From Comamonas badia DSM 17552 (GTDB lineage: Bacteria; Pseudomonadota; Gammaproteobacteria; Burkholderiales; Burkholderiaceae_C), in assembly GCF_000484635.1 (NCBI RefSeq), contig NZ_AXVM01000002.1, positions 248,001 through 312,000 of the forward strand: a DNA stretch of 64,000 bases, given 5' to 3'. A program made the translations under genes and the position numbers. Of this stretch, positions 23,888 to 61,281 are shown in pieces. Each line of letters starts with the position of its first letter. The stretch's first letter is position 1. The notes beneath the pieces are model-generated. The model was not told the origin of the DNA and searched no databases. It worked only from the letters and a program-made list of their open reading frames with translations.

Positions 23888-26800
23888 ATGACGCCACACG
23901 ACTTCATCGCCCAATGGGGCCCGGGCGGCAGCAGCAGCCACCTGAACGAAGAACAGGGCGCGCAGAGCCACTTCCTCGGCCTGTGCGAGCTGCTCGGCGT
24001 TCCCAAGCCCGGCAGCCCCGAGGTGGCGGGCGAATACCTGTTCGAGCGCCGCTCGCTCGTGCTGGGCGAAGCCCGCGGCTACGCCGACGTGTTCTACCGC
24101 GACCACTTCGCATGGGAGAACAAGGCGCCCGGCAAGAACCTCGACGCCGCCTTGCGCCAGCTCTTGCAATACAGCCTGGCGCTGGCCAACCCGCCGCTGC
24201 TGGTCGTCTGCGACCGGCTCACCATCCGCATCCATACCCAGTTCAACGGCCACCCGAGCGAGACGCACACCGTGCGCATCGAAGAGCTGGCGCAGCCCGA
24301 AAAACGCGCGCTGCTCGCCCGTCTTTGGCTGGATCCAGAAAGTTTTCGCCCGCGCCAGACCAGCCGCGACATCACCGAAGCCGCCGCCAAAAGCTTTGCC
24401 CAACTCGCCGCGCAACTGCGCGCTCGCGGCCATGCCGGCGAGGCGGTGGCGCACTTCCTCACGCAATGCCTGTTCTGCTTCTTCGCCGAAGACGTGGGCC
24501 TGCTGCCCGGGCGCATGTTCGAGCGCTTGGTCGACAACCGCCTGCTCACCAGCGACAAGCTCACCGCCGGCCTTGCCAGCCTGTTTCACACCATGCAGAC
24601 CGGCGGCCTGTACGGCGCGGACGACATCCCCTGGTTCAACGGCGGGCTGTTCGCGCGCATTGATGTCCCGAAGCTGGAGATCGTGGACATCACCGAGCTG
24701 CGCAACGCCGCCAGCCTGAACTGGAGCGCGATCGACGTCAGCATCTTCGGCACGCTGTTCGAGCGGGGCCTGGACCCCGCCAAGCGCAGCCAGCTCGGCG
24801 CGCACTACACCGATCCGGCCACGATCAACCGCATCATCGAGCCCGTCATCACCCGCCCGTTGCTGCAAGAATGGGAGCTGGTGGCGCAAGACCTGCAAGC
24901 GCTGACAGCCAAAATCAAGAAGAACGGCGACGCCGCCTACAAGAAGGCGCACCAGCGCCTGGTGCAATGGCTGGAGCGCCTGCGCGCCTGGCGCGTGCTC
25001 GACCCGGCGTGCGGCAGCGGCAACTTCCTCTTCATGGGCCTGAAGGCGCTGAAAGACGTGGAGCTGCACGCCATCACCGAAGCCGCGCGCCTGGGGCTCG
25101 ATCGCGAGCAGGACCTGGTCACCGGCGTGCACAACCTGCTGGGCATAGAACTCAACGAATACGCCGCGGAACTCGCCCGCGTCTCGGTCTGGATAGGCGA
25201 AATCCAGTGGCGCATCGCCCACGGCTACGCGGCCAAGACCAACCCGGTGCTGGAGCCGCTGGAGCAGATCGAATGCCGCGATGCGCTGCTGCAGTTTCTC
25301 CCTCCCCCTCTGGGGGAGGACGGAGGTGGGGGCGTTTCACCCCTTCCCCCGCCGGGGGAAGGCAGGGATGGGGGCATTTCTCTCCCTCCCCCGCTGGGGG
25401 AGGGCAGGGGTGGGGGCGCGGGCGCATCCGCATCCACCGCGCCCGATTCCGGCCCCGCAAGCCCCCACCCCAACCCTCCCCCAGTGGGGGAGGGAGTGAA
25501 AGAAGCGCAATGGCCCAAGGCCGATGCAGTAGTGGGCAACCCGCCCTTTCTGGGCGACAAGAAAATGCGCCGCGAACTGGGCGATGCCTACGTCGATGCC
25601 CTGCGCAAGACCTACGCAGGCCGCGTGCCCGGCGGCGCCGACCTGGTCTGCTACTGGTTTGAAAAAAGCCGCGCAGCCCTTGCCAGTCAAGCGCTGACAG
25701 CTTCTGGTTTGGTAGCAACCAACTCCATCCGCGGCGGCAAGAACCGCGCGGTGCTCGACGCCATCGTGCGACAAACGCGCATCTTCGACGCCTGGGCCGA
25801 TGAGCCGTGGGTGAACGACGGCGCGGCGGTGCGGGTGTCGCTGGTGGCGTTTGGAGCGGCTGAAACGCACGATCACCTCAACGGTCAGCAAGTCGCACAC
25901 ATCCACGCCGATCTGACGGCAGGGGACGCTGGGGACTCAACGCTCGATCTCACGGCAGCGTTGCGCCTCCAATCCAATGCCAATTGCTGCTTCGTGGGCA
26001 CGTCCAAGAAGGCCTCTTTCGACATAACGGGTGAACTGGCGCGATCGTGGCTCGCACTCCCCAACCCCAACGGGCGCAGCAGTGCGGAGGTCGTGAAGCC
26101 CTGGATCAGTGGCGCGGACATCGTGCGCCGACCTTCAGACACTTGGATCGTTGACTTCGGCGTGGACGCATCCGAGCAGGAATCTGCGTTGTTCGAGGCA
26201 CCGTTCACCTACGTTCTGCGTGTCGTGAAGCCCGAGAAGGACGCCGTGCGCAGCGCGGCAGAACGGCGACGGTGGTGGCTGCACGCACGCACCGCGCCGG
26301 ACATGCGCACCGCGCTACGGCAACCGCAGCGCTTCATCGCAACCTCCATCGTCGCCAAACACCGCCTGTGGGTCTGGTTCGACAAAAGCGTGTTGCCAAG
26401 CCATGCAACCGGCGTCATCGCCCGCGCCGACGACACCACCTTCGGCATCCTGCACAGCCGCTTGCACGAATGCTGGTCGCTGCGCATGGGCACCTCGCTG
26501 GAAGACCGCCCGCGCTACACCCCCACCACCTGCTTTGAAACCTTCCCCTTCCCGCTCGGCCTCACCCCTGCGGACACCGCCCACCAGCGCACCGAGCTGC
26601 TGGAGAGCGGCGCGCTGATCCCCGCCGATCTGCCCGCCACGCTTGACAATTTCAAGCCAAATCCGGCCCTAACGCAGGCAGGGCAGGCGCCAGCAGCTAT
26701 CAAACCCATACCACCGCGCGATGCCGCAACCGCCATCGCCGAGGCGGCGCACCGGCTCGACATGCTGCGCTGCAATTGGCTGAACCCGCCCGAATGGACG

Positions 26801-27094
26801 CGCCGCGTGCCCGAGGTGGTGCCGCTGGGCATGGCGCATTCCCCCTACCCCGACCGCATCGAGCCGCGCCACGATCTTTCGGAGCAGGATGCCAAGGCGC
26901 TGCAAAAGCGCACGCTGACCAACCTCTACAACGCCCGCCCCGCCTGGCTCGCGCAGGCGCATGAGGCACTCGATGCTGCCGTGGCCGCTGCCTACGGCTG
27001 GAGCGACTACCGCGCCGACATGCCCGACGATGAAATCCTGCGGCGGCTGCTGGCGCTCAATCTGGAAAGGGCGTCAGCGACGCCCAAGGGGTGA
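23888..27094 (+). CDS. MmeI-like (type IIL/IIG) restriction-modification enzyme
   Basis: A 1068-residue single-chain enzyme predicted to cut DNA and methylate adenine. The N-terminal nuclease motif fits MmeI exactly: Asp67, nine residues, then Glu77-Asn-Lys79. A helical spacer leads to the methyltransferase: SAM motif DPACGSGNFL at 372-381 and catalytic NPPF at 551-554. The target-recognition part follows, with ETFPFP typical of the family. Between the two methylase motifs, residues about 470-538 are Pro/Gly-rich and encoded by inserted palindromes; two more palindromes lie at 25668 and 26664. The reading frame is intact, so it may still work, but the insert needs testing. No partner gene is adjacent. 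Confidence 0.88.
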   Translation: MTPHDFIAQWGPGGSSSHLNEEQGAQSHFLGLCELLGVPKPGSPEVAGEYLFERRSLVLGEARGYADVFYRDHFAWENKAPGKNLDAALRQLLQYSLALANPPLLVVCDRLTIRIHTQFNGHPSETHTVRIEELAQPEKRALLARLWLDPESFRPRQTSRDITEAAAKSFAQLAAQLRARGHAGEAVAHFLTQCLFCFFAEDVGLLPGRMFERLVDNRLLTSDKLTAGLASLFHTMQTGGLYGADDIPWFNGGLFARIDVPKLEIVDITELRNAASLNWSAIDVSIFGTLFERGLDPAKRSQLGAHYTDPATINRIIEPVITRPLLQEWELVAQDLQALTAKIKKNGDAAYKKAHQRLVQWLERLRAWRVLDPACGSGNFLFMGLKALKDVELHAITEAARLGLDREQDLVTGVHNLLGIELNEYAAELARVSVWIGEIQWRIAHGYAAKTNPVLEPLEQIECRDALLQFLPPPLGEDGGGGVSPLPPPGEGRDGGISLPPPLGEGRGGGAGASASTAPDSGPASPHPNPPPVGEGVKEAQWPKADAVVGNPPFLGDKKMRRELGDAYVDALRKTYAGRVPGGADLVCYWFEKSRAALASQALTASGLVATNSIRGGKNRAVLDAIVRQTRIFDAWADEPWVNDGAAVRVSLVAFGAAETHDHLNGQQVAHIHADLTAGDAGDSTLDLTAALRLQSNANCCFVGTSKKASFDITGELARSWLALPNPNGRSSAEVVKPWISGADIVRRPSDTWIVDFGVDASEQESALFEAPFTYVLRVVKPEKDAVRSAAERRRWWLHARTAPDMRTALRQPQRFIATSIVAKHRLWVWFDKSVLPSHATGVIARADDTTFGILHSRLHECWSLRMGTSLEDRPRYTPTTCFETFPFPLGLTPADTAHQRTELLESGALIPADLPATLDNFKPNPALTQAGQAPAAIKPIPPRDAATAIAEAAHRLDMLRCNWLNPPEWTRRVPEVVPLGMAHSPYPDRIEPRHDLSEQDAKALQKRTLTNLYNARPAWLAQAHEALDAAVAAAYGWSDYRADMPDDEILRRLLALNLERASATPKG
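25298..25497. repeat. Array of GC-rich palindromes inside the restriction gene
   Basis: Three direct units spaced about 41 nt apart (from 25298, 25339 and 25381) share CTCCCTCCCCC, a 3-nt loop, GGGGGAGGGC and a GGGGTGGGGGC tail, and a fourth unit at 25461-25497 is inverted. Each can fold as a hairpin. The whole array keeps the reading frame open and adds roughly 68 residues to the protein. Similar units occur between genes in many Comamonadaceae and Xanthomonadaceae. Confidence 0.85.
25668..25702 (-). repeat. AGCGCT palindrome, copy 6 (in coding sequence)
   Basis: On the minus strand: AGCTGTCAGCGCTTG, spacer ACTGGC, AAGGGCTGC. It runs antisense to the restriction gene and codes for ALASQALTA. 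Confidence 0.7.
26664..26698 (-). repeat. AGCGCT palindrome, copy 7 (in coding sequence)
   Basis: On the minus strand: AGCTGCTGGCGCCTG, spacer CCCTGC, CTGCGTTAGGGCCG. It runs antisense to the restriction gene and codes for PALTQAGQAPAA. Confidence 0.7.
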
Positions 27095-27099
27095 AAGGC

Positions 27100-27136
27100 A
27101 AAAAAACAAGGGCACGCCCATGACGGGATGCCCTTG
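27100..27136 (-). terminator. Intrinsic terminator of the small exported-protein gene
   Basis: On the minus strand CAAGGGCA (27136-27129) pairs with TGCCCTTG (27114-27107), with extra CCC/GGG pairing inside, followed by seven T. It ends the minus-strand gene at 27176-27481 and lies just past the restriction gene stop. Confidence 0.85.
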
Positions 27137-27175
27137 TTGCCTGGTGTTCATCCCGGGCGGTCGCCCGGCGCCACA

Positions 27176-27481
27176 TCAGGACAGATTGCCGTAGGCCGGG
27201 CGGAAGCCATCCGCCAGCGCCTGGCGCGTGGCTTCGCGCACCTCGGCGCGGGTCAGGCTGCTCTCCACCGCGGCTTGCGCCACCGGCATGTTGCCGGCCT
27301 CGGGCGCCTGGGCGATGGCCTGGGCCTGCACATCGGCACGCTGGGCCTGGTTCACGACCACGTCTTGCGGCTGGAACAGCGGGAAGGCGCCAGCGGCGGG
27401 CTGCGCATCGGCGGCAAAGGCGGTACCCGAGACGAGCACGGCTGCGGCAACGGCGGCGAAAGCGAAATTCTTGCGGATCAT
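27176..27481 (-). CDS. Small exported protein, DUF4148-like
   Basis: A 101-residue protein with a signal peptide (about residues 1-23, ending GTAFAAD). The mature part is Ala/Gln-rich, and SSLTRAEVREATRQALADG near the end resembles the helix of DUF4148-type proteins that are common in Burkholderiales. Function unknown. AAGGAG 7 nt before the ATG and a strong terminator at 27100-27136 indicate a stand-alone, well expressed gene. Confidence 0.75.
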   Translation of the reverse strand: MIRKNFAFAAVAAAVLVSGTAFAADAQPAAGAFPLFQPQDVVVNQAQRADVQAQAIAQAPEAGNMPVAQAAVESSLTRAEVREATRQALADGFRPAYGNLS

Positions 27482-27830
27482 GATTTTCTCCTTACGGTGT
27501 GGTAAACCAAAAAAACAAACAAAACCTATGAGATAAACAGGTGGCCTGAGCCACTTTCCTTACCGGAGGTGCATCGGGTGATGTCCTTCGATGGCTTGTA
27601 TTGTGCGGGTTTACCCTAGTTTAAAAAAGCCTCTTAAATGGATATCACCGTTTCGAATTTGGAAACAATGCCCAAAGCCCTGGATCGACGCTGCCCGCGC
27701 CGAAGCGCTTCAGCCGGCCTGTTCGGCCAGGTGAAAGGCCCGGTGCTCATCCCATGGCGGCTGATGAGCGCCGAGGGCGAGCTGATTGGGGCGTTCTGGG
27801 AAGAGGCCGGGCGCACGTATCATTGCGCCG

Positions 27831-27893
27831 GTTGGCGGTGCTCCCACTTGGTGATGGGCTCAGATGTCCCGGTTCGAATCCGGGCCCGCCAAC
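27831..27893 (+). other. tRNA-like element without an anticodon arm
   Basis: GTTGGCGG (27831-27838) pairs with CCGCCAAC (27886-27893) as an 8-bp acceptor-like stem. A perfect T-arm follows the tRNA consensus: CCCGG (27868-27872), loop TTCGAAT, CCGGG (27880-27884). CCCA and TGGG enclose CTTGGTGA, which looks like a D-arm with the GG pair. Only nine nucleotides join it to the T-arm, so there is no anticodon arm, and no CCA end is encoded. It may be a degraded tRNA, an unusual tRNA, or a tRNA-mimicking RNA. Confidence 0.5.
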
Positions 27894-27979
27894 TCCCGAC
27901 AGCCCACGCTACCCCACGGATTGCGCAAACAACAGGTGCCGCTTGCGCTTGTGCACGGTCACGCTAGCATGCGTGCGCT

Positions 27980-28064
27980 GGATGATCGGTAGATGCGCTC
28001 CCTGGAGGCGCGGCGCCGATGAAAATCGGAAGCTGGCTGGGTTCAAGTCCCTCGCCGATCGTCC
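27980..28064 (+). other. Second tRNA-like element, long acceptor helix
   Basis: GGATGATCGG (27980-27989) pairs with CCGATCGTCC (28055-28064), and three more pairs extend it outward. A D-like arm GCGC/GCGC (27995-28011) encloses TCCCTGGAG, a hairpin CCGAT-GAAA-ATCGG lies at 28016-28029, and a T-like arm GGG-TTCAAGT-CCC at 28039-28051. The length and D-arm and T-arm wording recall a class II (Leu/Ser) tRNA, but there is no 5-7-5 anticodon arm and no CCA. Confidence 0.45.
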
Positions 28065-28150
28065 GGCACCCTTCGTTCAAAAGCTGGCGTTGCGCGGGAT
28101 GAGGCTGACAACCTAGGCTGCCCCATCGACGTCTGTCATTTCCAACACGC

Positions 28151-28327
28151 ATGACTTCTTACCATCCGCACATGCCACGCGTCATTCTGTTCATCGCCTG
28201 CTGCGCCGTGCTCGCCATGGGCGGCGGCATGGTGCGCAGCGCCATGGTGCTGGCAGCGCTGGCCTTTGCCAGCCTGTGCGCCTGGATCGCCTGGCAACTG
28301 GTTCGCATATTTCTCGGCAGGCCATGA
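28151..28327 (+). CDS. Small membrane protein (58 residues)
   Basis: A 58-residue protein with two hydrophobic runs (about residues 10-22 and 29-51), probably one or two membrane helices, and few charges besides a basic C-terminus. I do not recognise a family. Its stop overlaps the start of the next small gene by 4 nt (ATGA), which supports both being real. An internal ATG at 28172 is an alternative start. It lies just after the second tRNA-like structure. Confidence 0.55.
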   Translation: MTSYHPHMPRVILFIACCAVLAMGGGMVRSAMVLAALAFASLCAWIAWQLVRIFLGRP

Positions 28328-28470
28328 ACTCCATCGTGCTCAAGGCTTCGCTCATCCTGCTGCTGGCCGGTCTGCCCACCGCCATCGCAGGCATTGGCCT
28401 GGGTGTGTACCTGGTGCTGGCCGGCATCGCCGCGTACGGCTTGTGGTTCGCCTCGCTGTTGCTGGCGTAA
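28324..28470 (+). CDS. Small membrane protein (48 residues)
   Basis: A 48-residue, almost wholly hydrophobic protein with two likely membrane helices (about residues 5-25 and 28-46) split by a GxGxG-like turn. No family recognised. It is coupled to the preceding 58-residue gene by an ATGA overlap and ends 45 nt before the orphan antitoxin gene. The pair could be a small-membrane-protein module, but no holin or toxin signature is clear. Confidence 0.55.
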   Translation: MNSIVLKASLILLLAGLPTAIAGIGLGVYLVLAGIAAYGLWFASLLLA

Positions 28471-28515
28471 CGACCTGGCGGATGTGTCGGTCGCAGTCTG
28501 GAAAGGGAAAACGCC

Positions 28516-28755
28516 ATGAGCACCGCATTCGACAGCATCAAGCAAGGCCTTCAAGAGGTCATCGCCCATGCCCAGGACGACGAGCGCGGCGTGCGCGTGC
28601 ACCGTCCGCGCGCCATCGACGTGAAGGCCGTGCGCGCCAAGGTGGGCATGACGCAGGAACCATTTGCCGCCCGTTTTGGCTTTTCCACGGCCACCCTGCG
28701 GCACTGGGAACGCGGGGATCGCAACCCGCAGGCGGTCATCGAGGCCTTGGCGTGA
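28516..28755 (+). CDS. Orphan XRE-family antitoxin-like protein, internally shortened
   Basis: A 79-residue helix-turn-helix protein of the HigA/NadS-like antitoxin group: HRPRAIDVKAVRAKVGMTQ leads into FAARFGFSTATLRHWERGDR and the C-terminal NPQAVIEALA. Relatives I know carry about 15 more residues between GDR and NPQAV, so a deletion between two similar short sequences is likely. The usual upstream toxin gene is missing; two small membrane proteins are there instead. GGAAAG lies about 11 nt before the ATG. Confidence 0.75.
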   Translation: MSTAFDSIKQGLQEVIAHAQDDERGVRVHRPRAIDVKAVRAKVGMTQEPFAARFGFSTATLRHWERGDRNPQAVIEALA

Positions 28756-28767
28756 CCGAATCCGGGC

Positions 28768-30432
28768 TCAACCGACCTGCACCCAGTCGCGCCCCGCCGG
28801 TGGTTTGAAGCAAACCTTCCAGGCGCGGGCTGTCCGCAGCGCCTTGGCGATGGCGATCTGTTCCTGTTCGAGCAGGCGCGGCCGGTGTTCGTCGCGCAGG
28901 TGGCCCGGCCCAGCGGGCGCAATGCAGTCGCGCTGCCAGGCCGCGATGCGCCGTATCAGCGCGAGCGGCAGTTCGATCTGCTCGTAGCTGATCGGCTTGC
29001 CCCTGGCGTCCTGCAGACCGCTGCGGCCAAAGCCGATGTCCAGGCGGATTTCGTCGAGCTGGTGCGTGAAGGCGGCGCGTTCGGCCTGGCGTGCCGCCGC
29101 CCGTTCGGGCACGCCGCGCTTCGACAGGGTGGCCTCGGGATTGGACAAGCCCCAGCCGTCTATGCCGTGGTAGCCGACCTTGACGCCGAGCCGCAGGGCC
29201 AGCCACAGCAGATCCTCGGCGTGCTCGGACAGATTCAGGTGGTATGAAAACCGGGCGTCGTTGGCGATGATGCGCACCTCATCGGTCGTGGCCAGCAGCT
29301 CCACCGGGCGCTGCAGCCAGTCGTCCTGCGGCAGGCAACGTGCGCTGCGGCAACGCGCGCCGACGCGGCGCATCCATGCCGGGGTGGCGAGTTCCGGCGG
29401 TGCGGCGAAGCTCACGTCCGCGCCGATATGCTCGGCCACGATCATTTGCGCCACGTCGCGCGCGTCGATGGTCGCAAAGACGACCACCAGGGTCTTGCGG
29501 GCCTGCGGCGGCAGGTAGCGAAGCGTGCATGAACGCCTGCTCCAGAGCCGTTGCCCCAAGTCCAGTTCGAAGGGGTGAGCGTAACTGGCTGGCGCGACCA
29601 ACGCCGCCTTCAATTCGTCTGCGTGACGGGCGCCGCTGGCCTGGAGCAGGTAGCGCACGAAGCCGGAATCGGGCCGGTGGGTGCAGCACCAATGCAGAAT
29701 GAAAAAGCGGTGCGCGAAGTCGATCTGGCCATCGTCCTCGGGGTCGTCGGGCATGACCTCATGGTCGTCGAAGTGGTAGAGCGCGCGCCCCAACGTCTGC
29801 TCCAGCGCCTGCGCGATGGGGCGCATGGTCTGGCGCCAAGCGATGAAGGCCGCGTCCCAATCTGGTGCCTCGCCCTCTTGCTCGCACCATGGGGCGTGGA
29901 AGAACGTGAACTGCTCCCAGGGGCGCGGGTGTGCCGGCAACTGCTGCAAGGAAATCCGGGTCATCGGCGTCGCAGGCCCGCTCTGGTCGGGCCGGAATAT
30001 CGGAGCACTTGCCGCCACCTGCCCAGCCTGCTCCAGAAAATCGAGCGCTGCCGCAGACAAGCTCTGTTGCGTGGTGCGCAGCCAGTCGACGAAGTCGGCC
30101 ACCGGAATGTGCTCTGGCGGATGGGGGTCGCGGGGACTGAAATAGCAGGCCCGGCGTGCGGGCGCCGAATCACCCAGCATTCGCGCCACGATCTGGGTGG
30201 CCTGCGCCTGGGGTGTTGCCGCGCCTTCGCTGCGCAGCAGCGTCGCCAATGCCTGTACGGGTTCGAGGAAGGGCACGCAATATGCGCCCGGTGGTTCGCG
30301 GAGCCAGATGTAGCGGTTGCGCCGCACCATGTCGTCGGCGTCGGCGGCGTCAGCGAACCCGTCGAGGTGCGCGAGGGTCGCCGGCGCCAGCGCCGAGCGG
30401 GGCAATGCACGCACCAGCGCGGCAAGATTCAT
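28768..30432 (-). CDS. Uncharacterised 554-residue protein downstream of higBA
   Basis: I do not recognise this protein. It is soluble-looking, rich in Trp, His, Arg and Asp, with no signal peptide or membrane segment. Distinct stretches are the acidic DDHEVMPDDPEDDGQ near the middle, FFILHWCCTHRPDSGFVRYL, a beta-rich region around TLVVVFATIDARDVAQMIV, and GYHGIDGWGLSNPEATLSKRG. It begins 20 nt after the higA stop on the same strand, so it is likely co-transcribed with the toxin-antitoxin pair. ATG at 30438 is an alternative start. A third, accessory part of the module is possible but unproven. Confidence 0.7.
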   Translation of the reverse strand: MNLAALVRALPRSALAPATLAHLDGFADAADADDMVRRNRYIWLREPPGAYCVPFLEPVQALATLLRSEGAATPQAQATQIVARMLGDSAPARRACYFSPRDPHPPEHIPVADFVDWLRTTQQSLSAAALDFLEQAGQVAASAPIFRPDQSGPATPMTRISLQQLPAHPRPWEQFTFFHAPWCEQEGEAPDWDAAFIAWRQTMRPIAQALEQTLGRALYHFDDHEVMPDDPEDDGQIDFAHRFFILHWCCTHRPDSGFVRYLLQASGARHADELKAALVAPASYAHPFELDLGQRLWSRRSCTLRYLPPQARKTLVVVFATIDARDVAQMIVAEHIGADVSFAAPPELATPAWMRRVGARCRSARCLPQDDWLQRPVELLATTDEVRIIANDARFSYHLNLSEHAEDLLWLALRLGVKVGYHGIDGWGLSNPEATLSKRGVPERAAARQAERAAFTHQLDEIRLDIGFGRSGLQDARGKPISYEQIELPLALIRRIAAWQRDCIAPAGPGHLRDEHRPRLLEQEQIAIAKALRTARAWKVCFKPPAGRDWVQVG

Positions 30433-30451
30433 CGCCATGCCCAGGCCCGGT

Positions 30452-30763
30452 TCAACTTTGCGGTGTCGGCATGCGCGCAATACGTGAAAGCACGTCCCGT
30501 AGTGCCGGGCGTGCGGTAGCCATGTCGTAGTCTGCCTGCAAGCCCATCCAGAACTCGGCGCTGGCGCCGAAGTATTGCGCCAGGCGCAGTGCCGTATCAG
30601 CGGTCACGGAGCGGCGCTCGCGCACGATGTCATTGATGCGCGGCGCGGGCACCTGCAGCGCGTTCGCCAGCGCATGGGCTGTGATGCCCATGGGTTTGAG
30701 GAATTCTTCGCGCAACACCTCGCCTGGGTGTATGGGGCGCATGCCATTGGTGATGGTTTGCAT
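30452..30763 (-). CDS. higA: HigA-family antitoxin
   Basis: A 103-residue helix-turn-helix antitoxin. RPIHPGEVLREEFLKPMG is the typical HigA start, and ITAHALANALQVPAPRINDIVRE's first part is the DNA-binding helix pair, followed by TALRLAQYFGASAEFWMGLQ. It should neutralise HigB and repress its own promoter. It follows higB by 12 nt, the usual toxin-first order. Confidence 0.92.
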   Translation of the reverse strand: MQTITNGMRPIHPGEVLREEFLKPMGITAHALANALQVPAPRINDIVRERRSVTADTALRLAQYFGASAEFWMGLQADYDMATARPALRDVLSRIARMPTPQS

Positions 30764-30775
30764 GGCGGTTCTCCG

Positions 30776-31054
30776 TCAGTGATAGTCCACGATCTCTACT
30801 TGCGCTGCGTTGCTGCCCGTCCACACGAAGCACACGCGCCACTGATCGTTGATGCGGATGCTGTGCTGACCTTTACGATCGCCTTTGAGCGCTTCCAGGC
30901 GATTGTTCGGAGGAATGCGCAGATCGGCCAGACAGGTGGCTCGGTGCACCATCTGAAGCTTGCGTTCGGCGACAGCGCGCAGGTTGGCAAAGCGAGCCAC
31001 TGCCTGCCCGGCAAACAGCGCCTGGGTCTGTGCACATCGAAAGCTCTCGATCAT
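30776..31054 (-). CDS. higB: HigB-family (RelE-like) toxin
   Basis: A 92-residue RelE-superfamily mRNA interferase that cuts mRNA at the ribosome. Marks are MIESFRC, LRIPPNNRLEALKGDR, and HSIRINDQWRVCFVW, with the conserved Arg and the C-terminal VEIVDYH. The first half, RFANLRAVAERKLQMVHRA, is a helix pair usual for HigB-1. It is the first gene of a promoter with an operator-like palindrome at 31071-31085. Confidence 0.92.
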   Translation of the reverse strand: MIESFRCAQTQALFAGQAVARFANLRAVAERKLQMVHRATCLADLRIPPNNRLEALKGDRKGQHSIRINDQWRVCFVWTGSNAAQVEIVDYH

Positions 31055-31064
31055 TGATCGTCAG

Positions 31065-31094
31065 TATATAACGCGCCGCGTTAAATCACTAACA
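31065..31094 (-). promoter_or_regulatory. higBA promoter with operator palindrome
   Basis: Read on the minus strand: -35 TTAGTG (31094-31089), 18-nt spacer, -10 TATACT (31070-31065). The spacer holds a perfect inverted repeat, TAACGCG-C-CGCGTTA (31071-31085), well placed for HigA to block RNA polymerase. Confidence 0.75.
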
Positions 31095-31301
31095 CTGTGT
31101 CGTATGTGGCGTTTTCGAAGCAGACCCGCAGACTCGCCCTGTCAGGCCAAGTACGCACCTGGATACATCTGCCGCGCACCGGTATTCGGAATAGTTGAAA
31201 AAAAGCGTCAGCACGAATTCCATTCTGATTTCAAGACATTGGCAAAACACATGTTTACAGAAACAATCGTGTCATGAATCACATCGAATATCGTGCTGTT
31301 C

Positions 31302-32705
31302 ATGACCACGACATCGGTTGAACAACTGCTGGCAACACTGCGCCGCAAACCCCAGTCCAGCGCGCCTGAAGTGGCCGCCGCCCTGGGGGTAAGCGTGCCC
31401 ACCGCGCAGCGCCTGCTGCGCACTGCGGGCGATGCGGTCGTGAGCCTGGGGCGCGCTCGTCGCACGCGCCACGCCGCGCGCCGCAGCCTGCGCGGGCAGG
31501 CGCAAGACCTGCCGGTGTACCGCATCGACGCCGAAGGTATCGCCCACGCCTTTGCCACGCTGGCGCTGGTGGCGCCCCAAGGCTGCGCGATGGCGCTGCA
31601 AGAGGGCGGCTGGCCGCTGCCCGATGCATCGCGCGACGGCTGGTGGCCGGGGCTGCCCTATCCACTGCAGGATATGCGGCCCCAAGGCTACCTGGGCCGG
31701 CAGTTTGCGCGCGCCGTGCACGACGATCTGCAACTGCCGCCCGACCCGCGCGCTTGGGGGGATGACGAGGTGCTGCTGGCGCTGGCGCACGCGGGCCATG
31801 ACATGCCCGGCGACCTGGTCGTGGGCGAGCGGGCCTTGCGCCTGTGGCAGGCGCAGCGGTTGGCAGCGCCACCTGCGCTGACTGAGGAATGATTGCTAGA
31901 AGCCTACGCGGCGCTGGCCGAGCTGGCGTTGGCGGGCGGCGCAGCGGGTTCGAGCGCCGCGGGGGAGTTCCCCAAGTTTGCGGCGCTGCGCAGCCTGCCG
32001 TTGGCGCAGGAGGGCGGGCCCGATGGCGTGCCGCGCAGCGCGCATGTGCTGGTCAAGTTTTCCGGCGCGGGAGTGTAACCGGCAGAGCGCCGCTGGGCCG
32101 ATCTGCTGCGCGCTGAGCATCTGGCGCTGCAGACGCTGGCCGAGCACGGCGTGCCGGCGGCGCGCAGCCGCATCCTCACCGGCGCGGGGCGCACCTTTCT
32201 GGAGGTGGAGCGCTTTGACCGCCACGGCCTGTGGGGCCGCAGCCCACTGGTAAGCCTGGAGGCAGTGAACGCCGCGTTCCTGGGCCAGCCGCAACGCTCG
32301 TGGGCCGTGCTGGGCGCAGGTCTGGTGCGCCTGGATGTGCTTTCTGATCCGGCGCTGCAGCACATCGCCCGGCTGGAATGGTTTGGCCGCCTGATCGGCA
32401 ACACCGACATGCACCTGGGCAATCTGGGGTTTCGCCCACGGGCCGATGGTTTTTCGCCCGCCCCCGCTTACGACATGCTGCCGATGCGCTATGCGCCGCT
32501 GCCGGGCGGCGAGCTGCCGGCGCTGCGCCCGCTCGATCCTGCCCTGCCGCTACCGGCCGAGCGCAGCAACTGGCAGGCAGCGGCTGACGTGGCCATGGCG
32601 TTCTGGCAGCAGCTTGCCGATGACGTGGGCACTGCGCAAGACCTGCGCGCACTGGCGGGCACCCATGCCGGGCAGCTCACGCAATTGCGTGCGGTGGTGG
32701 GCTGA
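31302..32705 (+). pseudogene. YjjJ/HipA-like serine-threonine kinase gene with two in-frame stops
   Basis: One reading frame of 467 codons encodes a HipA-family kinase of the YjjJ type: an N-terminal winged helix (about residues 5-60), the HipA N-subdomain, then the kinase core with catalytic NTDMHLGN and the metal-binding PAYDMLPM. The frame is interrupted by TGA at 31890-31892 (codon 197) and TAA at 32076-32078 (codon 259), with no frameshift; family-like sequence resumes at once after each stop. It is most simply a pseudogene; the kinase half is otherwise well kept, so decay looks recent. No hipB-like partner is next to it. Confidence 0.8.
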
Positions 32706-32756
32706 GAGGCGCAGAGGCAATCCCCCACATGCCGCGTGCGCAACACCGCGCCTGCG

Positions 32757-34454: not shown

Positions 34455-34696
34455 GCAGCTTCCTTGGTCAGCTATCTTTGTTGCGACGGGCTCAGGGTAC
34501 GCAGCGCCCGCGGCGCTGGCAACCGGGCCAACCCCGGGCCGCAGTCGCCCACGCGACCGTGCACACCTGGTTACCCTGAAGGTGCTGGTGCGGGCCGCAC
34601 CATCAACGACAATCAGGGGCGGCGGCATGTCCGCCATCACTGAACCCATTTGACGCCCTGGCGGGAAACCAGCCGGCGCTGACCCATTTGCCTGCA

Positions 34697-37639: not shown

Positions 37640-38592
37640 CCCAGCCCTCACGCCCCGTCGCCTTTGCCTGCCTGGCGCTGAGCATGGTGCTTGTGGGCAG
37701 CTACGTGGCGCTGTCCAAGCCGCTGGCGCTGGCCTTTCCGGTGCTGCTGCTGGCGTGGCTGCGCTTTGGCATAGGGTCCGTGGCCATGCTGGGCTGGCTG
37801 CGCAAGCCGCCCGGCGAGCCGCCGCTGAGCCGCCGCGCCAAGGGGCTGCTGTTTCTGCACGCGCTGCTGGGCAATTTCCTCTTCACCGTCTTCATGATCT
37901 ATGGCGTGAGCCTGACCAGCGCGACGACGGCGGGCGTGATCATGGCGTCGATTCCCGCCTGCGTGGCGCTGCTGAGCCGGTTCTTTCTGCACGAACGCAT
38001 CAGCGCCCGCACCTGGGCGGCGATTGCCTGCGCGGTGGCGGGGATCGCGCTGTTTTCACTCCATAAACAGGAGCTGCCAGCGCTTGAACCACAAGCGCTG
38101 GAGGCCAAAAACGGTCAAATTCTGCAATGGCTGGGCATGGCGCTGCTGCTGGCCGCTTCACTGTGCGAGGCAGCGTATTCGGTGATCGGCAAGCACCTTA
38201 CGGGCACGCTCGGGCCGCGGCGCATCTCGGCGCTCATCAACCTCTGGGGCTTTGCCCTGGCCACCCCCGCCGGCCTGCTGCTGGCCCTGCGCTTCGACTT
38301 TGCCGCGGTGAGCGGTCCCACCTGGCTGCTGCTGCTTTTCTATGCCCTCGCCGCCTGCATGTGGTCGGTCTGGCTGTGGATGACGGGGCTACGCGTGGTG
38401 CCTGCCTCGCAGGCGGGCGTGTTCACCGTGCTGCTGCCGGTCAGCGCCGCGCTGGTGGGTGTGCTGGCACTGGGCGAGCAGATGAACATGCTGCAGATGC
38501 TGGCATTCGCGCTGGCGCTGGCCAGCGTGGTGCTGGCCACGCTGCCCGCCACCCTCTTCAGCCGTCTTGGCCATGCTCGGCGCGATCGCTGA
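37636..38592 (+). CDS. DMT-superfamily (EamA) transporter
   Basis: A 318-residue inner-membrane protein with ten predicted helices in two EamA repeats, the layout of metabolite exporters. It starts with TTG at 37636, overlapping the mnmC stop; the next ATG is 16 codons later and would remove half of the first helix. Residues about 143-162, in the cytosolic or periplasmic loop between the two repeats, are encoded by a near-perfect dispersed palindrome and are absent, as far as I recall, from relatives. The 3' end overlaps the convergent RraA-like gene by 35 nt. Confidence 0.88.
38072..38121 (+). repeat. AGCGCT palindrome, copy 8 (best copy, in coding sequence)
   Basis: Core 38072-38106: AGCTGCCAGCGCTTG, spacer AACCAC, AAGCGCTGGAGGCC, then a tail with GGTCAAATT. 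It runs sense to the transporter gene and codes for [12 protein letters not shown]. Confidence 0.9.
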
Positions 38593-44469: not shown

Positions 44470-45906
44470 TCACGCGGCTCGCTCGAACACCGCCATGCTC
44501 TCCACATGCGCGGTATGCGGAAACATGTTGATCACCCCTGCCGCCGTGCAGCGATAGCCCGCCTGGTGCACCAGCAGACCGGCATCGCGCGCCAGCGTCG
44601 CCGGGTTGCAGCTCACGTAGACGATGCGCTCGGGCGGCCGCCATGGCTGCGCCTCGGGCGGCAACGCGGCAGCGCCCTCGGCGCCTGTGCGCGCCTGATG
44701 GATGTCGGCCAGCGCTTTCACCAGCGCAAACGCGCCCTCGCGCGGCGGATCGATCAGCCAGCGCTGGGCGCTGCCATGCGCCACCAGCGCCTGCACCGTG
44801 ATTTCAAAGAGGTTGGAAACTTCAAATTCAGTAGCTGCAAGCGCTTGTCCCGCATGCGCTGTTGCCTGATTTCTATCAAAATTTTCCCTGGCCCTGGCAA
44901 TCAATGCGCGGCTGCCCTCCACGCCCAGCACCTTGCCCGCGCGCGTGGCGATCGGCAGCGTGAAATTGCCCAGGCCGCAGAACCAGTCGATCACACGGTC
45001 GGTCTTGCGCGGCGCCAGCAGGCGCAGTGCACGGCCCACCAGCACCCGGTTGATGTGCGGGTTGACCTGCGTGAAATCGGTCGGCCTGAAGGCGATCGTG
45101 ATGCCGAATTCCGGCAGGCTGTAGCTGAGCGGCACGCCGTCCGCCTGAAGCGGATGCACGCTGTCCGGCCCCTTGGGCTGCAGCCACCATTGCACGCCAT
45201 GCTGCTGCGCAAAGGCGCGCAGCAGTTGCAGATCCGCATCGGCCAGCGGTTCCAGATGGCGCAGCACCAGCACCGTCACGGCGTCGCCGCAGGCCAGCTC
45301 GATCTGCGGGCAGGTATCGCGCGCCGCCATCGCGGCTATCAGGGCGCGCAGCGGCATCAACAGCGCATCAACGTGCGGCGGCAGAATCCTGCAGGTCTGC
45401 ATGTCCGCGATGTAGCGGCTCCTGCGCTCGTGAAAGCCCACCAGCACGGTGCCCTTCTTCACCACATGGCGCACCGCCAGGCGCGCGCGGTAGCGGTAGC
45501 CCCAGCTGGGCCCGTGGATGGCGGGCAGCAGGGTTTCGGCCCGCACCTTGCCCAGGTGCCAGAGGTTGTCCTCCAGCACGCGCTGCTTGGCCGCCACCTG
45601 GGCCGAGGCCTCCAGATGCTGCATCTTGCAGCCGCCGCAGGCACCCGCGTGCAGACCAAAGTGCGGGCACTGCGGCCGCACCCGCTGGCTGGATTCGCGG
45701 TGGATTTCGGTCAAATCCGCCTGCTCCCACTGCTTCTTGCTGCGGCGCGAGACGGCGCTGACCCATTCGCCCGGCAGGGCGCCGTCGACGAACACCACCT
45801 TGCCGTCCTCACGGTGCGCAACGCCCTGCGCCTCCATGTCCATGGAGGTAATTTCAAGCCAGCCGGGGGGAAGGTGCGCGTGGTCGTTGTTCGGGCCGTC
45901 GTTCAT
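44470..45906 (-). CDS. rlmD: 23S rRNA (uracil-1939-C5)-methyltransferase
   Basis: A 478-residue SAM-dependent rRNA methylase. A TRAM-like N-terminus is followed by the 4Fe-4S ligands (Cys in [18 protein letters not shown]), the SAM site [12 protein letters not shown], and the catalytic Cys in [13 protein letters not shown]. Between the SAM domain strands, [18 protein letters not shown] is encoded by a dispersed palindrome, making this loop longer than in E. coli RlmD. It is convergent with the lipoprotein gene. Confidence 0.93.
44833..44867 (+). repeat. AGCGCT palindrome, copy 10 (in coding sequence)
   Basis: Core AGCTGCAAGCGCTTG, spacer TCCCGC, ATGCGCTGTTGCCT. It runs antisense to rlmD, which reads it as [12 protein letters not shown]. 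Confidence 0.85.
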
Positions 45907-55493: not shown

Positions 55494-57359
55494 GTGGCCA
55501 TCCCTCCGTCATTTCTGCAGGAACTGCTCGACCGCACCGACGTGGTCGAGGTCGTCGGGCGCTATGTGCAGCTCAAGAAAAGCGGCGCCAATTACATGGG
55601 GCTGTGCCCGTTCCATGGCGAAAAATCGCCCTCGTTCAGCGTCAGCCCCTCCAAGCAGTTCTTCCATTGCTTTGGCTGCGGCAAGAGCGGCAACGCCATC
55701 GGCTTTCTGATGGAGCACCAGGGCATGGGCTTCATCGAGGCGGTGCAGGACCTGGCGCAGCAAGCCGGCCTGCAGGTGCCCGAGGAGGAGCGCTCGCCGC
55801 AGGAGCGCGCACGCGCCGCCCAGCACAAAGAGCAGCAATCCACCCTCACCGAGGTGCTGGCCAAGGCCGGCCAGGCGTATCGCCAGCACCTGCGCGAGGC
55901 GGCCCACGCGATCGAATACCTCAAGGGCCGCGGCGTGAGCGGCCAGATCGCCAAACGCTACGGCCTGGGCTACGCCCCCGCGGGCTGGCATGGCCTGGCC
56001 AGCGTGTTCCCCGAGTACGACAGCCCGCTGCTGGTGGAAGCGGGACTGGTGATCCAGAGCGAAGAGGACGGCAAACGCTACGACCGCTTCCGCGACCGCG
56101 TGATGTTCCCCATCCGCAACGTCAAGGGCGAATGCATAGGCTTTGGCGGGCGGGTGTTCGGCGATGAAAAACCCAAATACCTGAATTCACCCGAAACCCC
56201 GGTGTTCCACAAGGGGCGTGAACTGTACGGGCTGTTTGAAGCGCGCCAGGCCATCCGCGAGGCCGGCAGCGTGCTGGTGACCGAGGGCTACATGGACGTG
56301 GTGGCGCTGGCGCAGCTGGGCTTTGGCAATGCCGTCGCCACGCTGGGCACCGCCTGCACGGCGGAGCATGTGCACAAGCTGTTTCGCTTCACCGAGCAGG
56401 TGGTGTTCAGTTTTGACGGCGATGCGGCCGGACGGCGCGCGGCGCGCAAGGCGCTGGATGCCGCCCTGCCCTACGCCACCGATACGCGCTCCATCAAATT
56501 CCTGTTTCTGCCGCCCGAGCACGATCCGGACAGCTTCATCCGCGCCTTCGGCCACGACGCGTTCGCGCGCCAGCTGGGCGATGCGCTGCCGCTGTCGCGC
56601 TTTCTGCTGGAAGCCGCCCGCGACGGATGCGACCAGGGCACGGCCGAGGGAAGAGCGCATATGCTGAGCAACGCCGAGTCGCTCTGGAATCTGATGCCCG
56701 ATGGCGCGCTCAAACAGCAGCTCCTCGCCGAATTGGCGGAGCTCGGGCACATGGAAGCGCAGCCGCTGTTGCAGCTATGGAAACAAAAGCATTCAGCGCA
56801 GCATCAGCAAGTGCCAGAGGCCGATTCGACTGGATACCGCTCCTGGCGCAAGGGCAACGATTGGCGCGGCTCCCGCCATGCCGGCGCACGTGTGGCGACG
56901 CAGGCGCCGCTGCCCCGCGGCACGCCGACGCGGCGCAGCGACCACGCGCTGCGCCTGCTGCTCTCGCACATGGCATTTCTGGAATCCCTGGAGCAGGAAG
57001 ACCGGATGGCGCTCGCCAACCTCGCCGAGCCCCACGGCCCGCTGTTCGTCTGGCTGGAAGGCCAATGGCATGAGCACGGCGTGCTGTCCTGGGCGCAGTT
57101 GCGCGAAGCCTTGCAAAACCATGCCTGCCAGCCGCTGGCCGAACGCATCATGACCGGCTCGCACGCACAGACCGAGGGCAACGAGGCCGAATGGCACGCC
57201 GAGCTGCACGACGTGCTGCGGCGCCTGCACATCGAGGCCATAGAGCAGGAGCAAAGCGCCCTCATCGCCGCCAGCGGCCAGGACCCGCAGGCGCTGGAGC
57301 GCTACCGCCAGCTTGAAGAGCGCCGCCGTGCGCTGAAGGCGCCAGCCAACGCGCAATGA
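55494..57359 (+). CDS. dnaG: DNA primase
   Basis: A 621-residue primase. The zinc-binding domain has CPFHGEKSPSF and FHCFGCGKSG, the Toprim part has LVTEGYMDVVALAQ and VVFSFDGDAAGRRAA, and the C-terminal helical domain contacts DnaB. GTG at 55494 (MAIPPSFLQELL) is the family N-terminus; an upstream GTG at 55464 adds ten unrelated residues. Residues about 432-444 (in KQKHSAQHQQVPEA) are encoded by a diverged dispersed palindrome, in the flexible linker before the C-terminal domain. Confidence 0.95.
   Translation: MAIPPSFLQELLDRTDVVEVVGRYVQLKKSGANYMGLCPFHGEKSPSFSVSPSKQFFHCFGCGKSGNAIGFLMEHQGMGFIEAVQDLAQQAGLQVPEEERSPQERARAAQHKEQQSTLTEVLAKAGQAYRQHLREAAHAIEYLKGRGVSGQIAKRYGLGYAPAGWHGLASVFPEYDSPLLVEAGLVIQSEEDGKRYDRFRDRVMFPIRNVKGECIGFGGRVFGDEKPKYLNSPETPVFHKGRELYGLFEARQAIREAGSVLVTEGYMDVVALAQLGFGNAVATLGTACTAEHVHKLFRFTEQVVFSFDGDAAGRRAARKALDAALPYATDTRSIKFLFLPPEHDPDSFIRAFGHDAFARQLGDALPLSRFLLEAARDGCDQGTAEGRAHMLSNAESLWNLMPDGALKQQLLAELAELGHMEAQPLLQLWKQKHSAQHQQVPEADSTGYRSWRKGNDWRGSRHAGARVATQAPLPRGTPTRRSDHALRLLLSHMAFLESLEQEDRMALANLAEPHGPLFVWLEGQWHEHGVLSWAQLREALQNHACQPLAERIMTGSHAQTEGNEAEWHAELHDVLRRLHIEAIEQEQSALIAASGQDPQALERYRQLEERRRALKAPANAQ
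56788..56822 (+). repeat. AGCGCT palindrome, copy 11 (in dnaG)
   Basis: Core AGCATTCAGCGCAGC, spacer ATCAGC, AAGTGCCAGAGGCC. Diverged but with the standard spacing; sense to dnaG and in the same codon phase as the copy in the DMT-transporter gene. Confidence 0.65.
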
Positions 57360-57636: not shown

Positions 57637-59877
<2,241 letters not shown>

Positions 59878-59891
59878 ACGGTCCATGCGCG

Positions 59892-59917
59892 CCGCGGCGC
59901 GCTACCACGCGCCGCGG
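59892..59917. terminator. Hairpin between convergent rpoD and MFS gene
   Basis: CCGCGGCGCG (59892-59901) pairs perfectly with CGCGCCGCGG (59908-59917) across 6 nt. It covers the stop codon of the MFS gene and follows rpoD by 14 nt. Confidence 0.65.
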
Positions 59918-61281
59918 TGCTCCGGCACCCGCGCCACCACCGGCAGCAGCAAGAGCGACATCGCCGCCAGCAGCGCATAGCTGGCGGCCAGCACGTCGCC
60001 CTGCCCGGGTGACGCGGCCATGGCCGAGGTGATGACCGCCAGCGCCACGATCACCCCCACCTGCTGCGCCGTCGCGCGCAGCGCCGACATGGTGGCCGCG
60101 CGCTCGGGCACCAGCTGCAGCGCGGCATTGCGGCTTGCCGGTCCCATCAGCCCACTGGCCGCCCCGGTGAACACCGTGGCCGCCGCCAGCCACATCCACG
60201 GCGACAGGCCCAGACGCGGCGCCAGCGCCAGCATCAGCATGCCTATGGCGACCAGCACGCCGCCGACGTAAAACGGCAGCCGGTAGCCGCTCCAGCGCAG
60301 CGCCCAGGCCGCCAGCGGCCCGATCACCAGCCCAACCACGGCCTGCGCCGTGAGCAGCGTGCCGGCATCCAGTGCATCCAGACCGTAGCGCAACGCCGCG
60401 TACAGCGGCACCAGCGTGAGTGCGCCTATCACCGCCCCGCCGTAGGTGGCGTTGAGCAGGTTGGTTGCGGCAAAGCCCTTGCCGTAGATCAGGCGCGGCG
60501 GCAAAAAAGGCTCGGCCACCCGTGCGATGTGCCAGAAGAACGCCCAGCCGCTGGCAACGGCCAGCGCCAACGGGACAAGGAAAGGCCAGGACAGCACCAG
60601 CACGTCCGGATTGCCCAGCAGGCTCGCCGCGAGCATGCCCGCGATGACGGCGACACCCAGCAGCAGTACGCCCGGTACATCCATGCCGCGGCGTGAGCGG
60701 TCTTCGGGCCGATCCGGCGGGATCAGCCACCAGCCGAGCAAGGCCATGAAGCAGCCGATGGGCACGTTCACGAAGAACACATCGCGCCAATGCGCGTAAG
60801 TGACGAACAGCCCGCCCAGCACCGGCCCCATCAGGCTGCCTACCGAGAACACCGCGCCAAACAGGCCCAGGATGCGATCGCGCCCGCCGCCGAACCACGC
60901 CACCACGATGCCGGTGGCTGCAGGTGTCAGCCCGGAGCCGCCCATGGCCTGCAGCGCGCGAAACAGTACCAACGCATAGATATTGCCCGCCAGGCCACAG
61001 GCCAGCGACGCCAGCGCAAACGCCAGGGCCGAGAGCAGAAACACGCGCCGGTTGCCAAAGCGCTCGGCCAGGCGCCCGCTGACGGGCAGCATCACCACAT
61101 AGCCAAACCAGTAGGCGGTGATGGTCCAGCCCGTCCAGTTGATAGGCGCATCCAGGTCGCTCGCCAGCGCATGCAGCGCGGTGGCGACGATGGTGGCGTC
61201 GATGGACATCATCATCAGCGCAAACGCTATGACAATGAATACCATAGCGCTTTGCGCACGTCCCATGGGCGCTGGAGCCAT
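59902..61281 (-). CDS. MFS transporter, DHA2 (EmrB/QacA-like) family
   Basis: A 459-residue proton-driven exporter with about 14 helices. Motifs are IDATIVATAL in helix 1 (the DHA2 acidic site), SGRLAERFGNRR for the loop 2-3 motif A, and FRALQAMGGSGLTPAA. The drug or metabolite is unknown. The first 12 codons (MAPAPMGRAQSA) are encoded by a dispersed palindrome that also supplies the ATG, so the start region is recent or was replaced. It is divergent from the tolC-like gene. Confidence 0.9.
   Translation of the reverse strand: MAPAPMGRAQSAMVFIVIAFALMMMSIDATIVATALHALASDLDAPINWTGWTITAYWFGYVVMLPVSGRLAERFGNRRVFLLSALAFALASLACGLAGNIYALVLFRALQAMGGSGLTPAATGIVVAWFGGGRDRILGLFGAVFSVGSLMGPVLGGLFVTYAHWRDVFFVNVPIGCFMALLGWWLIPPDRPEDRSRRGMDVPGVLLLGVAVIAGMLAASLLGNPDVLVLSWPFLVPLALAVASGWAFFWHIARVAEPFLPPRLIYGKGFAATNLLNATYGGAVIGALTLVPLYAALRYGLDALDAGTLLTAQAVVGLVIGPLAAWALRWSGYRLPFYVGGVLVAIGMLMLALAPRLGLSPWMWLAAATVFTGAASGLMGPASRNAALQLVPERAATMSALRATAQQVGVIVALAVITSAMAASPGQGDVLAASYALLAAMSLLLLPVVARVPEHRGAW
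61246..61280 (+). repeat. AGCGCT palindrome, copy 12 (at MFS start codon)
   Basis: Core AGCGCTTTGCGCACG, spacer TCCCAT, GGGCGCTGGAGCC, then a tail with TTGAAAATTC. It runs antisense to the MFS gene and spans its first 12 codons and start codon. Confidence 0.65.

What the first reader, a model, noticed from the sequence alone, without database searches (positions are those of the whole stretch)
25668..61280. Palindrome copies inserted into proteins keep one codon phase
Seven copies overlap genes (hisD, restriction enzyme twice, DMT transporter, rlmD, dnaG, MFS gene). All four antisense copies (25668, 26664, 44833, 61246) are read with codons starting at the same position of the repeat, giving related peptides around QALTA, GQAPAA and GQALAA; two of three sense copies (38072, 56788) also share a phase. 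This recalls Rickettsia palindromic elements, which add peptides to proteins.
Basis: seen in the sequence. Interest (0 to 1): 0.82.

Follow-up and report, generated by a model that had tools for sequence, protein, structure and literature searches.

The report
DNA motif overprinted on bacterial genes
A 47-base two-fold symmetric DNA motif, scattered through the genomes of one bacterial family, also lies inside protein genes, usually in one codon phase, and the bacteria seem to keep its DNA letters rather than the peptide, mostly without having lengthened the protein.

Summary
The window lies in a Comamonadaceae genome rich in a 51-nt palindromic repeat. In a sample of this genome 25 of 35 copies deep inside genes use one phase (28% expected from open frames, p=1.5e-7), which reads (A)L..QAL on either strand because the core is a palindrome. 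In another genus, G018, it is 3 of 10 (no bias).

The Rickettsia-style reading is not supported: of 97 element-lacking orthologs 67 keep the length within 4 residues and 3 are shorter by 13 or more. The DNA is kept beyond what the peptide needs: in element-rich relatives 46 of 59 orthologous sites still match and 49 of 59 beat all 300 synonymous recodings; in element-poor ones 1 and 6 of 24. Constrained wobble bases are better conserved than free ones within the element (0.86 against 0.68, p=0.008).

Best reading: a dsDNA recognition site maintained in place (recogniser unknown), with phase set by tolerated residues. Its core was listed in 2017 as an unexplained motif; old REP-like insertion is the main rival.

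The parts
3807..3857 (+). copy of the 51-nt dyad element at the 5' edge of a called gene
   Evidence: model R1, 37.5 bits; gene context
   Evidence: 16.1 bits, E 0.058; below matrix threshold 16
12639..12689 (-). copy next to a gene 3' end; a changed copy lies at the same place in G006 and G008
   Evidence: 42 bits; gene context; DNA alignment
23816..23866 (-). copy just upstream of the MmeI-like gene (it overlaps only a doubtful called ORF of 49 residues)
   Evidence: 35.6 bits
24868..24918 (+). weak genic copy, sense, phase P1, peptide QEWELVAQDLQALTAKI
   Evidence: matrix score 24.0; 11.2 bits
25659..25710 (-). genic copy, antisense, phase P1, peptide FEKSRAALASQALTASG
   Evidence: 30.8 bits; phase
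26656..26706 (-). genic copy, antisense, phase P1, peptide KPNPALTQAGQAPAAIK
   Evidence: 17.8 bits; matrix 34.9
38064..38114 (+). genic copy, sense, phase P1, peptide [17 protein letters not shown], just behind the first EamA match of a DMT-type transporter
   Evidence: 49.6 bits; Pfam; orthologs
44825..44875 (+). genic copy, antisense, phase P1, peptide [17 protein letters not shown], in RlmD
   Evidence: 38.9 bits; ortholog DNA
56780..56830 (+). very weak or decaying genic copy, sense, phase P1, in DnaG
   Evidence: matrix 17.6; not found by the covariance model
61238..61288 (+). unsure copy overlapping the start of an MFS gene
   Evidence: 11.9 bits, E 1.5; nearly the same DNA in G002
23888..27094 (+). 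host gene, MmeI-like restriction-modification enzyme (three copies)
   Evidence: Pfam PF20473, PF20464, PF20465, PF20466
37636..38592 (+). host gene, EamA/DMT transporter
   Evidence: PF00892
   Evidence: PF05958
55464..57359 (+). host gene, DNA primase DnaG
   Evidence: PF08275, PF01807
59902..61281 (-). gene whose start overlaps the unsure copy, MFS transporter
   Evidence: PF07690

Best explanation
The repeat is a sequence-specific, two-fold symmetric double-stranded DNA site of about 47 bp: A/T tract, ATAGCT, GCGCTTG, 5-nt spacer, CAAGCGC, AGnC, ATTT. A protein or process of the cell recognises it, and copies are maintained in place, at the DNA level, both beside gene ends and inside genes. 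Genic copies are overprinted on existing codons, mostly without a length change. Phase is an after-effect: on the palindromic core, phase P1 reads Ala/Leu/Gln-rich residues (xAL..QAL) from either strand, whereas the other frames read more Arg, Lys, Cys or Ser, so copies survive mainly in P1 (and sense P0). When a lineage loses the maintaining factor, its copies fade and the protein takes its preferred residues (in RlmD, LAPT against LAAT). Shown: reality of the repeat, phase bias in this genome, length neutrality at most sites compared, conservation of the DNA beyond the peptide. Inferred: the recognising factor, whether selection or molecular drive keeps the sites, and tolerance of residues as the cause of the phase.
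For: Half-sites hardly occur alone: at score >=14, 177 left halves in all and 5 outside full copies, 165 right halves and 3 outside. No covariation of the arms in 54 genic copies (7.43 pairs of 13, 7.54 when arms are swapped). Length neutrality. Substitutions in orthologs from element-rich genomes mostly keep the motif (z mostly 3-6 against random placement). In element-rich relatives 49 of 59 ortholog sites beat all 300 synonymous recodings and 46 of 59 score >=16; in element-poor ones 6 of 24 and 1 of 24. Four-fold wobble columns: constrained by the motif 0.86 majority (19 columns), free element columns 0.68 (11), rest of the genes 0.80 (1519); constrained against free p=0.008, against rest p=0.044. 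Column 9 is T in 93-100% in RlmD, GluQ-RS and DUF3025 although GCT is 4% of Ala codons. The RlmD copy is kept in 18 of 23 loci with another copy nearby, 10 of 57 without (p=5e-7). In L335 the site differs from four sister Acidovorax by 43-47% against 13-15% in the rest of the gene, and its stretch holds 0 copies, against 3-4 in five of six sisters and 1 in the sixth, a 6.7-kb contig (RlmD copy included).
Against: Corrected for the tree, the RlmD association rests on 6 independent pairs (on average 3.4 one way, 0 the other, 2.6 no difference; median p 0.25). Only 30 wobble columns in the element could be tested; A/T at wobble sites is raised in free element columns (0.44) as much as in constrained ones (0.42; rest 0.08), so that excess marks element-derived DNA and is no proof of constraint. 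Pooled four-fold identity inside copies is hardly above the flanks (0.71 against 0.68). GluQ-RS, AtuA, RecB-like copy 1 and carboxyltransferase sit in variable stretches, some shorter without the element. G018 shows no phase preference (3 of 10). Non-genic copies show weak arm covariation (z 2.9 own, 1.5 G018) and, between tandem genes, sit a median 8 nt behind the stop codon, which also suits a terminator. No cognate protein is known.
Confidence: 0.47

Rival explanations
1. A REP/MITE-like insertion family. Copies were inserted long ago as about 50-nt blocks, mostly behind genes and sometimes into genes; only in-frame, tolerated ones survived; loop lengths were later trimmed, and lineages without the mobiliser let them erode.
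For: Placement beside 3' ends, rare between divergent genes (8 of 128 against 15 of 80 gaps, p=0.007), as reported for REPs (PMC3733652, section read). About 9 residues more in RlmD of most family members than in most order-level outgroups, and 2 of 5 GluQ-RS and the 1 AtuA without the element shorter by 13 or more. Raised A/T at free wobble columns fits foreign DNA.
Against: 67 of 97 element-lacking orthologs have the same length within 4 residues, 3 are shorter by 13 or more; transporter copy with an unchanged core, yet 6 of 7 element-lacking relatives within 4 residues; no Y1_Tnp (RAYT-type) transposase found in the genome, other mobilisers not searched; maintenance beyond the peptide.
Confidence: 0.32
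2. A bidirectional intrinsic terminator or mRNA hairpin element, kept for RNA structure.
For: Stem with T-tracts on both sides (consensus -22 and -23 kcal/mol for the two strands), median 8 nt from the upstream stop codon between tandem genes.
Against: Genic copies show no arm covariation yet keep sequence; a terminator inside a gene should be harmful; both orientations occur in genes.
Confidence: 0.12
3. The peptide is what is kept: the repeat spreads a useful xAL..QAL peptide, as one could propose for protein-coding palindromes.
For: Shared phase and similar peptides.
Against: Amino acids inside copies are less conserved (0.56) than flanks (0.75), while the DNA beats synonymous recodings; other phases also occur.
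Confidence: 0.04
4. Chance resemblance of common codons (GCG CTG and the like) to a palindrome.
Against: 0 matrix hits in all controls; in 5 element-poor relatives (about 24 Mb, best 150 candidates scored in each) 4 model matches at E<=1, all E>=0.5.
Confidence: 0.02

Closest known systems
Motif pair GCTTAT(N)5AAGCG of Acidovorax ebreus TPSY and perhaps ATAGCT(N)22CAAAAG of Polaromonas naphthalenivorans CJ2 (PMC5217627, one section and passages read)
   Same: The A. ebreus pair fits our core (GCTT, 7 nt, AAGCG); 114 copies, 107 intergenic, 44 convergent, 4 divergent, close to genes.
   Different: Reported only as a potential novel motif without function; genic copies (5 of 114; 18 of 125 for CJ2), phase, orthologs and DNA-level maintenance are not studied in the section read. 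The CJ2 pair does not fit our spacing letter for letter.
GTAG- and CGTC-tagged REPs with intragenic copies (PMC3733652, one section and passages read)
   Same: Short palindromes, behind genes, supply stop codons, some inside genes, many of them repair genes (ours include MutS and UvrD- and GyrA-type families).
   Different: ATAG at the tag place in 198 of 253 non-genic copies, GTAG in 15; no Y1_Tnp found; no length gain at most genic sites compared.
Rickettsia palindromic elements (recalled; only mentions in PMC3733652 and search listings seen)
   Same: Palindromic repeat read in frame inside unrelated proteins.
   Different: Those are described as insertions that add peptides; here most hosts compared keep their length.
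DNA uptake sequences and molecular drive (PMC1939737, passages read)
   Same: Said to accumulate by change of existing sequence in tolerant coding and non-coding DNA rather than by insertion.
   Different: Uptake sequences are short and not palindromes; here a 47-bp dyad whose halves hardly stand alone, in fewer copies (uptake-sequence counts recalled).
Beta-proteobacterial repeat element BRE (PMC3110155, one section and passages read)
   Same: Repeat in Comamonadaceae among others, some copies within genes.
   Different: About 90 bp, 69% GC in Bordetella, often tandem; its sequence is not in the text read, so identity could not be tested.

Membership tests
Rickettsia-type protein-coding palindromic element | insertion adds a peptide absent from orthologs without the repeat | tested here: not met
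   3 of 97 element-lacking orthologs shorter by 13 or more residues, 67 of 97 within 4; met at best for GluQ-RS and AtuA
Rickettsia-type protein-coding palindromic element | repeat read in frame inside unrelated proteins | tested here: met
   35 deep genic copies in this genome sample; varied Pfam hosts
GTAG REP | GTAG tetranucleotide at one end | tested here: not met
   GTAG 15 of 253, ATAG 198 of 253
GTAG REP | RAYT (Y1_Tnp) transposase in the genome | tested here: not met
   no match to PF01797 at E<=0.001 in the genome (24 contigs), 5 of 14 control genomes ring
REP in the broad sense | short palindrome, many copies, behind genes and rarely between divergent genes | tested here: met
CGTC REP | CGTC tetranucleotide at one end | tested here: inconclusive
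   CGTC anywhere on either strand in 24 of 253 copies; not scored at the end itself
DNA uptake sequence | short single site over-represented on its own | tested here: not met
   half-sites outside full copies 5 and 3, of 177 and 165 in all
DNA uptake sequence | preferred uptake of DNA carrying it | not testable with these tools
   needs a transformation assay
Intrinsic terminator | stem followed by T-run behind genes | tested here: met
   consensus fold and placement; termination itself not tested
Rfam families | match at gathering score in the window | tested here: not met
   0 matches

The most novel reading that the evidence does not exclude
A new class of chromosomal landmark in Comamonadaceae: a 47-bp dyad DNA site, read as a whole by an unknown factor (nucleoid, segregation or DNA-uptake machinery), that spreads and is kept in place by point change, strongly enough to hold wobble bases and even residues inside core proteins such as RlmD, MutS and RecB-like helicases, and that vanishes from the whole genome when the factor is lost.
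Probability: 0.28. Interest if true: 0.85.

Novelty: new variant of a known kind. Interest (0 to 1): 0.6.

Why it matters
Palindromic repeats inside genes are usually taken as insertions of selfish DNA that add peptides. Here conserved genic sites can be followed through many genomes (96 RlmD sequences), and DNA constraint can be told from protein constraint. If a factor recognises the site, proteins of this family are shaped in part by a non-coding duty of their genes, and comparing genomes that have lost the element with those that keep it could name the factor.

Tried and rejected
Rfam scan of the window: nothing. Y1_Tnp/RAYT as mobiliser: no match; other mobilisers were not searched. Viruses: an exact core pattern in 5 stretches of the IMG/VR collection, so rare there. 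Uneven spread over the nine largest contigs: not significant (p=0.12). Codon log-odds of the six frames as the cause of the phase: rank correlation 0.37, p=0.47. Pooled four-fold identity gave almost no difference; it mixes constrained and free columns and was followed by the column test, which was run again with other cut-offs and with the dropped rows put back. The random-placement test starts from our own copy and overstates the neutral loss if the common ancestor was a perfect copy. The recoding test on copies chosen by score is biased by that choice and is not used as evidence. A search for the core letters gave 894 papers; the 20 listed looked unrelated. That the genic behaviour is unreported rests on searches.

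Rows dropped: of 148 matches, 12 opposite-strand doubles were merged (136 left). Three genic calls from relatives (L200:19134, L200:7925, L205:2360), whose called genes I judged wrong, are left out (54 of 57 kept); L203:3628 may also be wrong and was kept. One search leaves out hits under 38% identity or not spanning the site. One search leaves out L312 (same RlmD as G005) and L338 (same as G003, no motif at the site, one copy nearby); one search puts them back and the result stands. Four RecB-1 rows are probably misregistered by alignment gaps and count as misses. The G018 stretches were chosen for clusters of strong copies, so weak genic copies are under-sampled there.
Full report
What the repeat is. 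The window is G000:C2:248001-312000 of a 3.68-Mb genome in 24 contigs, from Comamonadaceae to judge by its RlmD (best match in named contigs 81%, an unnamed Burkholderiales MAG, then Oryzisolibacter, Giesbergeria, Simplicispira, Acidovorax and others). Exact-core copies have the form AAAAnAATAGCTGnCAGCGCTTGnnnnnCAAGCGCTGnAGnCCnATTTTTGC. A covariance model gives 148 matches at E<=1 in the genome, 136 distinct copies, with the first look capped at 150 scored candidates; weaker copies exist besides. Of 40 genomes, ours included, 16 have matches at E<=1e-6; the 15 others are all in the same family (up to 148 matches each, the cap), 8 more of that family have none, and none of the 16 from other families of the order has any.

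Controls. In five element-poor relatives (G009, G013, G015, G019, G021; about 24 Mb, best 150 candidates scored in each) the model gives 4 matches at E<=1, all at E>=0.5; G017 (26 matches) and G014 (3, down to 4e-5) carry diverged or faded copies. A position matrix built from 100 copies not inside genes gives 0 hits at score >=12 in 1.25 Mb of reversed DNA and 106 kb of element-free loci, in 400 kb of element-poor relatives and in 6.85 Mb of codon-shuffled genes.

Where copies lie. The matrix finds 182 copies in 0.74 Mb of own DNA, a sample chosen mostly around copies: 81 intergenic, 40 at 3' ends, 9 at 5' ends, 52 inside; 35 of these are deep, that is more than 60 nt from both gene ends (or the gene runs off the stretch) in a well-scoring gene. 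Copies outside genes and between tandem genes lie a median 8 nt behind the upstream stop (n=172, own and G018) and copies are rare between divergent genes, 8 of 128 against 15 of 80 gaps (p=0.007). In 11 of 40 own 3'-edge copies the gene's stop is the TGA or TAG of the element's TGATAG.

Phase. I define phase by the codon start relative to the core AGCGCTT. Because the core is a palindrome, sense P1 and antisense P1 read the same GCG CTT ... CAA GCG CT. Of the 35 deep copies 25 are P1 (16 antisense, 9 sense), 7 P0 and 3 P2. From the share of stop-free non-genic copies in each frame P1 is expected at 28%; p=1.5e-7, and p=1.4e-4 for the 16 copies with a score of at least 40 (12 P1). Sense P1 holds a stop in 91% of non-genic copies, by the consensus its TAG, and the sense P1 genic copies have that codon changed. 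In G018, another genus, P1 is 3 of 10 (p=0.57) and sense P0 leads with 5; that sample was chosen for strong copies. In 80 more genomes 6 host clusters give P1 5 and P0 1, of which RlmD and the transporter are shared with ours. The preference is thus shown for this genome and only suggested for others. Codon preference alone does not explain it. The residues differ, Ala/Leu/Gln in P1 against Arg/Lys/Cys in P2 and Ser/Ala in P0, so a filter by protein tolerance is the natural, inferred, cause.

Insertion or not. Pfam families of hosts include tRNA_U5-meth_tr (RlmD), EamA, MmeI domains, MutS, DNA_topoisoIV (GyrA/ParC type), UvrD with PDDEXK (RecB-like), tRNA-synt_1c (GluQ-RS type), AtuA, biotin carboxylase, carboxyl transferase, N6_Mtase/HsdM, IPPT (MiaA type), LNT_N, DUF3025 and LytTR (gene names beyond the Pfam names are recalled). 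For 11 host sites I compared protein length across the site. Of 97 element-lacking orthologs 67 are within 4 residues of the element-bearing median and 3 are 13 or more residues shorter (2 GluQ-RS, 1 AtuA). In MutS and DUF3025 conserved residues run through the element region in relatives without it, and the orthologs compared are not shorter by more than one residue. In RlmD most family members have about 9 residues more than most order-level outgroups, with or without the motif; G013 of the family is short. Genomes without the motif often read LAPT where bearers read LAAT. So most genic copies are not recognisable insertions. An old insertion with later trimming is not excluded for RlmD, GluQ-RS, AtuA and the linkers.

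DNA-level maintenance. Orthologous sites in element-rich relatives that keep the motif (score >=16) differ from ours at 6 to 24 of 51 bases. Against 300 synonymous recodings of each ortholog's own peptide, 49 of 59 sites in element-rich genomes exceed all recodings and 46 of 59 score at least 16; in element-poor genomes 6 of 24 and 1 of 24. Genomes were classed by total copy number, not by the site. At four-fold wobble sites in element-rich genomes (for RlmD also genomes with another copy near the gene), columns that the motif constrains have majority 0.86 (19 columns), free element columns 0.68 (11) and the rest of the genes 0.80 (1519); constrained against free p=0.008, against rest p=0.044, and similar with other cut-offs and with dropped rows put back. 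A/T at these sites is 0.42, 0.44 and 0.08: raised in free columns too, so it marks element-derived DNA and does not by itself show constraint. Amino acids inside copies are less conserved than flanks, 0.56 against 0.75; the pooled four-fold identity inside is hardly raised, 0.71 against 0.68.

Loss. Over 80 genomes the RlmD copy is present in 28: in 18 of 23 loci with another copy nearby and 10 of 57 without (p=5e-7). On the RlmD tree it changes 14 times at the fewest; tree-corrected pairs hardly ever disagree but are too few for significance. In L335, inside an Acidovorax clade of bearers, the site differs from four sisters by 43-47% against 13-15% in the rest of the gene.

Hairpin or site. 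Genic copies keep sequence but show no arm covariation; half-sites hardly occur alone. This points to double-stranded recognition of the whole dyad, though intergenic copies may well serve as bidirectional terminators too.

Known work. The core was listed in 2017 as a potential novel motif in Acidovorax ebreus, 114 copies, 107 intergenic, no function given (PMC5217627, section read). Intragenic REPs, many in repair genes, are known in other bacteria (PMC3733652, section and passages). In-place spread by drive has been proposed for uptake sequences (PMC1939737, passages). I found no report of phase, length neutrality or wobble conservation for this family in searches.

Noticed in passing
window 25297-25501: Four copies of a second, GC-rich repeat (CTCCCTCCCCC..GGGGGAGGG; three direct, one inverted) lie inside the same MmeI-like gene; a peptide PLPLGEGRGEG, which looks like the same kind of repeat, stands in AtuA, RecB-like and biotin carboxylase proteins here or in relatives. 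It might be the published BRE, not tested.
   Followed up: no
window about 23900-34600: The MmeI-like gene and neighbours have almost no counterpart in the syntenic stretches of G006 and G008 (one 354-nt piece matches elsewhere), so this looks like an island.
   Followed up: no
own-genome 3'-edge copies, e.g. L071, L044: The element's TGATAG supplies the stop codon of neighbouring genes (11 of 40 own 3'-edge copies, 8 of 27 in G018).
   Followed up: partly
L079 1395-10728: Three genic copies stand in one gene cluster (carboxyl transferase, biotin carboxylase, AtuA).
   Followed up: partly
L022 2852-4531 and L230: An antisense P2 copy with almost the same peptide (SQIGLQRLSGKRYQLLN / SQIGLSRLSGKRYQLLN) is shared by two genera.
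   Followed up: no
G017: Carries 26 weak matches, perhaps a diverged version of the element.
   Followed up: no
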